A stretch of DNA of 64,000 nt from the NCBI GenBank assembly GCA_947373225.1, contig CANBWX010000003.1, positions 1 to 64,000 on the forward strand. The letters run 5' to 3'. The notes under the pieces were generated by a model. The model searched no databases. It was given only the letters and a program-made list of their open reading frames with translations, and was not told where the DNA came from. Shown here piece after piece: positions 59,669-64,000 of this stretch. This DNA is from Flavobacteriaceae bacterium. GTDB lineage: Bacteria; Bacteroidota; Bacteroidia; Flavobacteriales; Flavobacteriaceae. Numbering within the stretch: position 1 is the first letter of the stretch; each line of letters begins with the position of its first letter. The translations under genes and the position numbers were made by a program.

Positions 59669-59785
59669 TGTCATTTCGACAAAAGTCTATAATCACATTA
59701 GTTGCTCACTTTATGTGATTTGCTTCGTCTGTTTGAGCATAGCTCTCGGGTCTCCTTTGTCGAAATGACAAAAGTCTATAATCAC
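59669..59785. repeat. Nested palindrome, GTCATTTCGAC family
   Basis: TGTCATTTCGACAAA (59669-59683) / TTTGTCGAAATGACA (59756-59770); inner AATCACAT/ATGTGATT; 19-bp direct repeat GACAAAAGTCTATAATCAC at 59678 and 59767. Confidence 0.8.
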
Positions 59786-62388: not shown

Positions 62389-62565
62389 TTTACTTTTTAT
62401 TTAAAGTTTAATGTAAGTTTCTAACGTTTGAAATAAAATATCAAATCTCATTCCACTGTTAAAGTTACGACAAAATGACTGATAATGTAGATTTTTCGGA
62501 TTATTAATTAATTAGAAAAATTTAACGTAAATATCTTATTTTCAATTGTTTTAATGCCAAAAAAT

Positions 62566-62617
62566 ATCGCCACGAATTCAAGAATTAAGTTGATGTAATT
62601 CGTGAATTCGTGGCGAT
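62566..62617. repeat. Long hairpin GCCACGAATTCA...TGAATTCGTGGC between argH and clpB
   Basis: ATCGCCACGAATTCA (62566-62580) / TGAATTCGTGGCGAT (62603-62617), inner GAATTA/TAATTC. Confidence 0.8.
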
Positions 62618-62645
62618 TGGATTGAATTGAAAATGAATTTTCCTT

Positions 62646-63923
62646 TTAGAATGAATCTCTCATTTTTCTTTTTATTTCTTTTAAACACAGATTGTTGATA
62701 CTTCCTTCGTGTGTATGTTTTGTTTCTTTTGGTGATTGAAAAGTACCGTTTTCTAATTGTTCGGCAACAGTTTTATAAGCATCTCTGAAAGGAATTCCTG
62801 CAACTACCATTTCATTTAAAGTATCAACGGTAAATAGATAATTGTACTTAGGATCGTCTAGAATATGGTCTTTTACTTTGATGTCTTTTATGGAGAAAAT
62901 GGCAATATCCAAACACGCTTTTAGGTTTTGAATAGCAGGAAACAAACCTTCTTTCAACAATTGTAAATCCCTGTGATAACCGCTTGGCAAGTTGTTGGTG
63001 ATTAACGTAATTTCATAAGGCAACGCTTGAATTTTGTTGCATTTTCCACGAATTAATTCAAAAACATCAGGATTTTTCTTGTGTGGCATAATGCTAGAAC
63101 CTGTCGTAAGATGTGCTGGCAAACTGATAAAATTAAAATTTTGACTCATATACAAACACACATCCATAGAAAATTTTGCCAAAGTTGCAGCAACGCTACT
63201 CATTGCGAAAGCCACTGTTTTTTCTGATTTTCCACGGCTCATTTGCGCCGCAACCGAATTGTATTTTAAGGTTTCAAAGCCTAATTCTTTGGTTGTAAAA
63301 GTTCTGTTGATAGGAAATGAACTTCCGTAACCTGCAGCAGAACCTAAAGGATTTTGATCTACGATTTTCAAAGCTGCATTTAGCATCGTAATATCGTCAA
63401 TCAAGGTTTCGGCATAAGCAGAAAACCACATTCCGAAAGATGACGGCATCGCAATTTGCAAATGTGTGTAACCTGGCAATAACACATTTTGGTGTCTTTC
63501 GGCAGATTCCATTAGTAAGTCAAAAAGGGTTTGAACTTGTACTTTAAATTCTTTTACGACGTCTTTTAGATACAAATTTACATCGACTAAAACTTGGTCA
63601 TTACGCGAACGAGCTGTGTGGATTTTCTTTCCAGCATCACCTAGTTTCAGAGTCAATAAATACTCGATTTTAGAATGTACATCTTCAAAACTATCTTCAA
63701 TTTCGAAATCGCCTTTTTCGACATCAATGATGATATCTTCTAAAGCGAGAACCAAAGAATCGGTTTCTTCATCAGTTAAAAGTCCAATTTGTCCCAACAT
63801 TTTGGCGTGAGCAATAGAGCCTAACGCATCGTATTTGGCTAGGACCAAGTCGAGTTCACGGTCGTTTCCAACGGTGAAATGTTCTATTTGTTTATCTGTT
63901 GGTATTCCTTTTTCCCAAAGTTT
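62646..63923 (-). CDS. argH: Argininosuccinate lyase; start codon not identifiable
   Basis: KLWEKGIPTDKQIEHFTVGNDRELDLVLAKYDALGSIAHAKML; TGSSIMPHKKNPDVFELIRGK signature. No ATG/GTG/TTG until TTG at 63848. Confidence 0.9.
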   Translation of the reverse strand, partial: KLWEKGIPTDKQIEHFTVGNDRELDLVLAKYDALGSIAHAKMLGQIGLLTDEETDSLVLALEDIIIDVEKGDFEIEDSFEDVHSKIEYLLTLKLGDAGKKIHTARSRNDQVLVDVNLYLKDVVKEFKVQVQTLFDLLMESAERHQNVLLPGYTHLQIAMPSSFGMWFSAYAETLIDDITMLNAALKIVDQNPLGSAAGYGSSFPINRTFTTKELGFETLKYNSVAAQMSRGKSEKTVAFAMSSVAATLAKFSMDVCLYMSQNFNFISLPAHLTTGSSIMPHKKNPDVFELIRGKCNKIQALPYEITLITNNLPSGYHRDLQLLKEGLFPAIQNLKACLDIAIFSIKDIKVKDHILDDPKYNYLFTVDTLNEMVVAGIPFRDAYKTVAEQLENGTFQSPKETKHTHEGSINNLCLKEIKRKMRDSF

Positions 63924-63944
63924 CCTAGGTGTATTTTTTATTTC

Positions 63945-63972
63945 GTAGGGACAAGTCGCGACTTGTCCCTAC
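63945..63972. repeat. Perfect 28-bp palindrome
   Basis: GTAGGGACAAGTCG|CGACTTGTCCCTAC. Confidence 0.9.
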
Positions 63973-64000
63973 TTATTATTGTTTAAAAAAATCAGTCAAT

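What the first reader, a model, noticed from the sequence alone, without database searches (positions are those of the whole stretch)
63848..63972. argH has lost its canonical start codon next to a perfect 28-bp palindrome
The conserved N-terminus KLWEKGIPTDKQIEHFTVGNDREL is intact, but the codon where ATG is expected (63926-63924) reads AGG. Upstream in frame the sequence is TAG GGA CAA GTC GCG ACT TGT CCC TAC GAA ATA AAA AAT ACA CCT AGG AAA CTT TGG, so no ATG, GTG or TTG exists between the stop and TTG 63848, which would delete about 26 conserved residues. The palindrome GTAGGGACAAGTCG|CGACTTGTCCCTAC lies within this leader and is translated in frame. An insertion of a repeat element may have removed the start, forcing use of a rare start codon (for example ATA), truncation, or loss of ArgH.
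Basis: partly seen in the sequence, partly recalled or inferred. Interest (0 to 1): 0.65.

Follow-up and report, generated by a model that had tools for sequence, protein, structure and literature searches.

The report
argH start codon lost by point mutation
In this Flavobacterium draft genome, one changed base turned the start codon of an otherwise intact arginine-synthesis gene from ATG to AGG; the neighbouring palindrome is a common short repeat that did not cause it, so this is an ordinary recent loss-of-start mutation or a sequencing-consensus error.

Summary
argH (62646-63926, minus strand) has AGG where its start codon should be, there is no in-frame ATG/GTG/TTG between the upstream TAG and TTG 63848, and a perfect 28-bp palindrome lies at 63945-63972, directly after argE. 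The proposed cause fails. All 80 named Flavobacterium relatives carry ATG at this codon. In a 400-genome survey of the genus, 196 genomes gave the motif and only this one has a non-T middle base. Species with no insert between argE and argH (e.g. L100: CAATAAAAAATACACCT-ATG) share the last 16 nt before the codon with this genome, so the element lies upstream and removed nothing. Thirteen relatives carry the same or a decayed palindrome in this spacer with ATG intact. What remains is a single T->G change. The gene shows no decay: dN/dS 0.018 against the closest relative, like neighbouring arg genes, with no frameshift or stop. The loss is therefore very recent, or a consensus error, or (less likely) tolerated by weak non-canonical initiation. 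argB, argC, argE, argF and argG are present and open, and no second argH exists. The palindrome resembles GTAG-type REPs but fails two defining tests: only two copies, and no adjacent RAYT carries it.

The parts
62646..63926 (-). argH (argininosuccinate lyase), 426 codons counting AGG as codon 1, stop included; open and full length
   Evidence: TIGR00838 341 bits against cut-off 279.5; 98% aa identity to L034; no internal stop
63924..63926 (-). AGG at the ancestral ATG start codon (single T->G change)
   Evidence: 80/80 named relatives have ATG; only genome among 196 with the motif to have a non-T middle base
63927..63942 (-). Ancestral leader AATAAAAAATACACCT, intact
   Evidence: Identical to empty-site relative L100; most of its 3' part shared with L049, L042, L057 and L067
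63939..63941 (-). ATA, the only near-cognate (ATN) codon in frame upstream; 3 nt 3' of the hairpin
   Evidence: Direct reading; fold
63945..63972 (.). Perfect 28-bp palindrome GTAGGGACAAGTCGCGACTTGTCCCTAC, REP-like, in the argE-argH spacer
   Evidence: same or decayed element at this place in 13 relatives
63973..63978 (-). Tandem stop codons TAA TAA ending argE (argE continues beyond the window to about 65046)
63846..63848 (-). TTG, first conventional start codon in frame; its use would delete residues 1-26

Best explanation
A single T->G substitution changed argH's start codon from ATG to AGG, independently of the palindrome. The palindrome is a short mobile-looking repeat that entered the argE-argH spacer, as such elements did in many other Flavobacterium species, and it left the start codon and its leader untouched. 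If the base is real, the change is very recent and most likely abolishes or strongly reduces ArgH synthesis, giving arginine auxotrophy or a leaky phenotype in that lineage. Shown: the ancestral ATG, the intact leader, the single-base difference, no other decay, the rest of the pathway present. Inferred: that the base is real (about 60:40 over consensus error) and that expression is lost.
For: ATG in 80/80 named relatives and in every row listed of 196 genomes with the motif; only this genome has a non-T middle base. The 16-nt leader is identical to empty-site L100. dN/dS 0.018 against G040, with argB 0.016, argE 0.041, argF 0.043 and clpB 0.023; on the own branch 44 synonymous and 3 non-synonymous codon changes, on the sister branch 31 and 2. 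No second argH in the genome; argG, argC, argB, argE and argF open. Of 61,358 ancestral AUG starts reconstructed in PMC5622118, switches were reported only to GUG, UUG, CUG and AUU, so AGG is not a known tolerated replacement.
Against: No reads, no second genome of the species and no expression data, so a consensus error cannot be excluded. The complete lack of decay is also what an error or a still-translated gene would give.
Confidence: 0.85

Rival explanations
1. The AGG is a one-base consensus or assembly error in a draft genome (178 contigs); the real gene starts with ATG. (This is a sub-case of the one-base change above, so the two confidences overlap.)
For: Draft assembly of 178 contigs, 96% complete; the change is unique in the genus and the gene shows no decay.
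Against: Over the whole 67.9-kb contig, genes shared with G040 and G002 show no other frameshift, internal stop or lost start, so the assembly is not error-rich.
Confidence: 0.35
2. ArgH is still made at full length from a non-canonical start, either AGG itself or ATA 63941-63939, which would add MKNTP before R-KLW.
For: The gene is under strong purifying selection; Flavobacterium selects starts without Shine-Dalgarno pairing, by low structure and upstream A (PMC6847099), and the region from ATA to AGG is A-rich.
Against: AGG was not among replacements of ancestral AUG in PMC5622118. ATA lies 3 nt from a very stable hairpin, within the -20 to +20 zone that tends to be unstructured in F. johnsoniae.
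Confidence: 0.1
3. Translation starts at TTG 63848 and gives a 400-residue ArgH lacking residues 1-26.
For: It is the first conventional start in frame; the fragment still scores over the argH cut-off (336.9 against 279.5 bits).
Against: The deleted stretch KLWEKGIPTDKQIEHFTVGNDREL is nearly invariant in the genus and its end aligns with the N-terminus of solved ArgH 1tj7; all relatives keep the longer form.
Confidence: 0.05
4. Insertion of the palindromic element destroyed the start codon.
For: Palindrome and lost start are only 18 nt apart.
Against: Leader between them is the ancestral one; 13 relatives have this element type here with ATG intact.
Confidence: 0.02

Closest known systems
Argininosuccinate lyase ArgH (TIGR00838)
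   Same: Full-length homologue, over the curated cut-off, in an argF-argB-argE-argH cluster
   Different: AGG at the start codon position
GTAG-tagged repetitive extragenic palindromes (REPs; PMC3733652, PMC2817692)
   Same: Intergenic, 28 bp, palindromic, begins GTAG
   Different: Only two copies in the genome; no adjacent Y1_Tnp/RAYT gene carries it
Ribosome termination structure, a stable hairpin right after a stop codon (PMC7518266)
   Same: Stable hairpin directly after argE's tandem stops, in a 49-nt spacer
   Different: Present in a minority of species and evidently inserted, so not a conserved regulatory structure here; effect on argH untested

Membership tests
Argininosuccinate lyase (argH, TIGR00838) | Score over the curated model cut-off | tested here: met
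   341 bits against 279.5
Argininosuccinate lyase (argH, TIGR00838) | Complete gene with a usable start codon | tested here: not met
   AGG instead of ATG; next conventional start is TTG 63848
Argininosuccinate lyase (argH, TIGR00838) | Catalytic activity / arginine prototrophy | not testable with these tools
   Needs the strain or an expressed gene
REP (GTAG class) | 20-40 bp palindrome in extragenic DNA | tested here: met
   28 bp, between argE and argH; second copy just upstream of a dut-like gene
REP (GTAG class) | GTAG tag at one end of the palindrome | tested here: met
   Begins GTAG and ends CTAC
REP (GTAG class) | High copy number in the genome | tested here: not met
   Two copies with up to 3 mismatches; two with a relaxed core pattern
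REP (GTAG class) | Cognate RAYT (Y1_Tnp) flanked by the same palindrome | tested here: not met
   Four Y1_Tnp loci in this genome, none with this palindrome within about 1.5 kb

The most novel reading that the evidence does not exclude
A conserved, selected biosynthetic gene in a bacterium that does not use Shine-Dalgarno pairing is translated at useful levels from AGG (or from ATA beside a hairpin), which for AGG would be a natural start codon outside the NTG/ATN set.
Probability: 0.06. Interest if true: 0.6.

Novelty: new member of a known kind. Interest (0 to 1): 0.15.

Why it matters
If the base is real, it is a fresh start-codon loss in a core biosynthetic gene, caught before any other decay, and it predicts arginine dependence in this Flavobacterium. 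If it is an error, it shows how one base can make an intact pathway look broken. More generally, the argE-argH spacer is a repeated landing place for several unrelated short palindromic elements across Flavobacterium, and they leave the start codon alone.

Tried and rejected
Element removed the start: rejected by empty-site and filled-site relatives. Old pseudogene: rejected by dN/dS and branch counts. A second argH elsewhere: the only other match in the genome is a 25% identical superfamily member. Error-rich assembly: no other broken gene on the contig; one flagged internal stop proved to be a start-site artefact. RAYT for this palindrome in the same genome: not found. Copies of the argH 5' end in viral contigs: none. 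No metagenome scan was available to look for other strains.

Full report
What is there. On the minus strand the window ends in an arg cluster: argF', argB, argE (mostly beyond the window) and argH. argE ends in tandem TAA TAA (63978-63973). A perfect 28-bp palindrome, GTAGGGACAAGTCGCGACTTGTCCCTAC, follows at 63972-63945. Then come GA, the leader AATAAAAAATACACCT (63942-63927), AGG at 63926-63924, and AAACTTTGGGAAAAAGG..., the conserved N-terminus KLWEKGIPTDKQIEHFTVGNDREL. The first conventional start in frame is TTG 63848, residue 27.

The ancestral start. Every one of 80 named Flavobacterium loci has ATG at the homologous codon, as do all but one of the more distant relatives that could be aligned (the exception, L021, is only 58% identical and starts elsewhere). 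In 400 genomes of the genus, 196 hold the motif [ACT][AGT]G-AAACTNTGGGANAAAGG... (the list is cut, but every row shown is ATG). A second search for a middle base other than T matched this genome alone. The start was ATG, and the change is one T->G transversion.

The palindrome is not the cause. The argE-argH spacer ranges from 6 to 580 nt in the relatives. At least seven species have an almost empty spacer of 6-11 nt, for example L100, CAATAAAAAATACACCT-ATG. This genome has the same last 16 nt before its AGG, and AATAA occurs on both sides of the insert, which would fit a short target duplication (inference; the sequence is A/T-rich). So the insert lies upstream of an untouched leader and start codon. 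Thirteen relatives carry the same palindrome or a decayed form in the same spacer with ATG intact: L042, L044, L050, L056, L063, L065, L066, L067, L072, L076, L080, L082, L083 (read by eye). Others carry unrelated short repeats there. The closest relative, L034/G040, lacks the palindrome.

State of the gene. argH is 98% identical in protein to L034 and has no stop or frameshift. dN/dS against G040 is 0.018; argB, argE, argF and clpB give 0.016, 0.041, 0.043 and 0.023. Using L035 as outgroup, the own branch has 44 synonymous and 3 non-synonymous codon changes, and the sister branch 31 and 2, with 19 codons unresolved. Constraint has not been relaxed for any appreciable part of the branch. There is no second argH. 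argG and argC lie together on another contig and are open; argG scores just under its model's cut-off (259.5 against 268.2) but is full length.

Real or error. No reads are available. Genes shared with G040 and G002 across the 67.9-kb contig show no other lost start, frameshift or internal stop, so the assembly is generally sound. A single wrong consensus base remains possible, and I give it 0.35.

If real, what happens. [quoted passage not shown] Flavobacterium johnsoniae lacks Shine-Dalgarno sequences and tends to keep about -20 to +20 around the start unstructured (PMC6847099). The hairpin (region MFE -23.9 kcal/mol, z -6.0) ends 18 nt before AGG but only 3 nt before ATA 63941, which speaks against ATA. 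The TTG form would lose 26 nearly invariant residues. The likeliest outcome is therefore little or no ArgH; this is inference.

The palindrome's identity. It is intergenic and carries GTAG, like the GTAG class of REPs (PMC3733652). But it has only two copies in this genome at up to three mismatches, the exact core is present in 4 of 150 genomes of the genus, and none of the four Y1_Tnp loci here carries it. I call it REP-like and do not file it as a REP.

Noticed in passing
L002:9900-9960 (contig C3 about 65899-65957, beyond the window): argB has an extended N-terminus, MSPKPNVIPSAVEGQNRKP, part of which (CATCCCGAGCGCAGTCGAGG) resembles a repeat seen in the argE-argH spacers of L047, L074, L090 and L102; it is single-copy in this genome at up to 2 mismatches. 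G040's argB starts instead with an AAAAGCC tandem repeat.
   Followed up: partly
L115 (G000:C32), 1952-2153: A Y1_Tnp (RAYT-like) gene is followed by four copies of a CCCACGGTTTCAACCGTGGG-type hairpin at roughly even spacing, which looks like a RAYT with its own REP array.
   Followed up: no
L117 (G000:C19), 1940-1988: A Y1_Tnp-like gene with a perfect 24-bp-arm hairpin (AACTCAATACACCTGACAGGTTTT...) shortly downstream.
   Followed up: no
argE-argH spacers of many loci, e.g. L036, L047, L054, L077, L094: A longer element of about 110 nt, GGAGCTAATCCCGCTATCCG...CTATCGGGGCTAAAA, fills this spacer in a large share of Flavobacterium species; with several other short repeats this makes the spacer a recurrent landing site.
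   Followed up: partly
62560-62620: An inverted repeat downstream of argH (CGCCACGAATTCACGAATT ... AATTCTTGAATTCGTGGCG) is the same type as one found in the argE-argH spacer of L108, L110, L111 and L113.
   Followed up: no
59669-59773: A stretch of about 105 bp just downstream of clpB matches several dispersed places in G040, suggesting another interspersed repeat.
   Followed up: no
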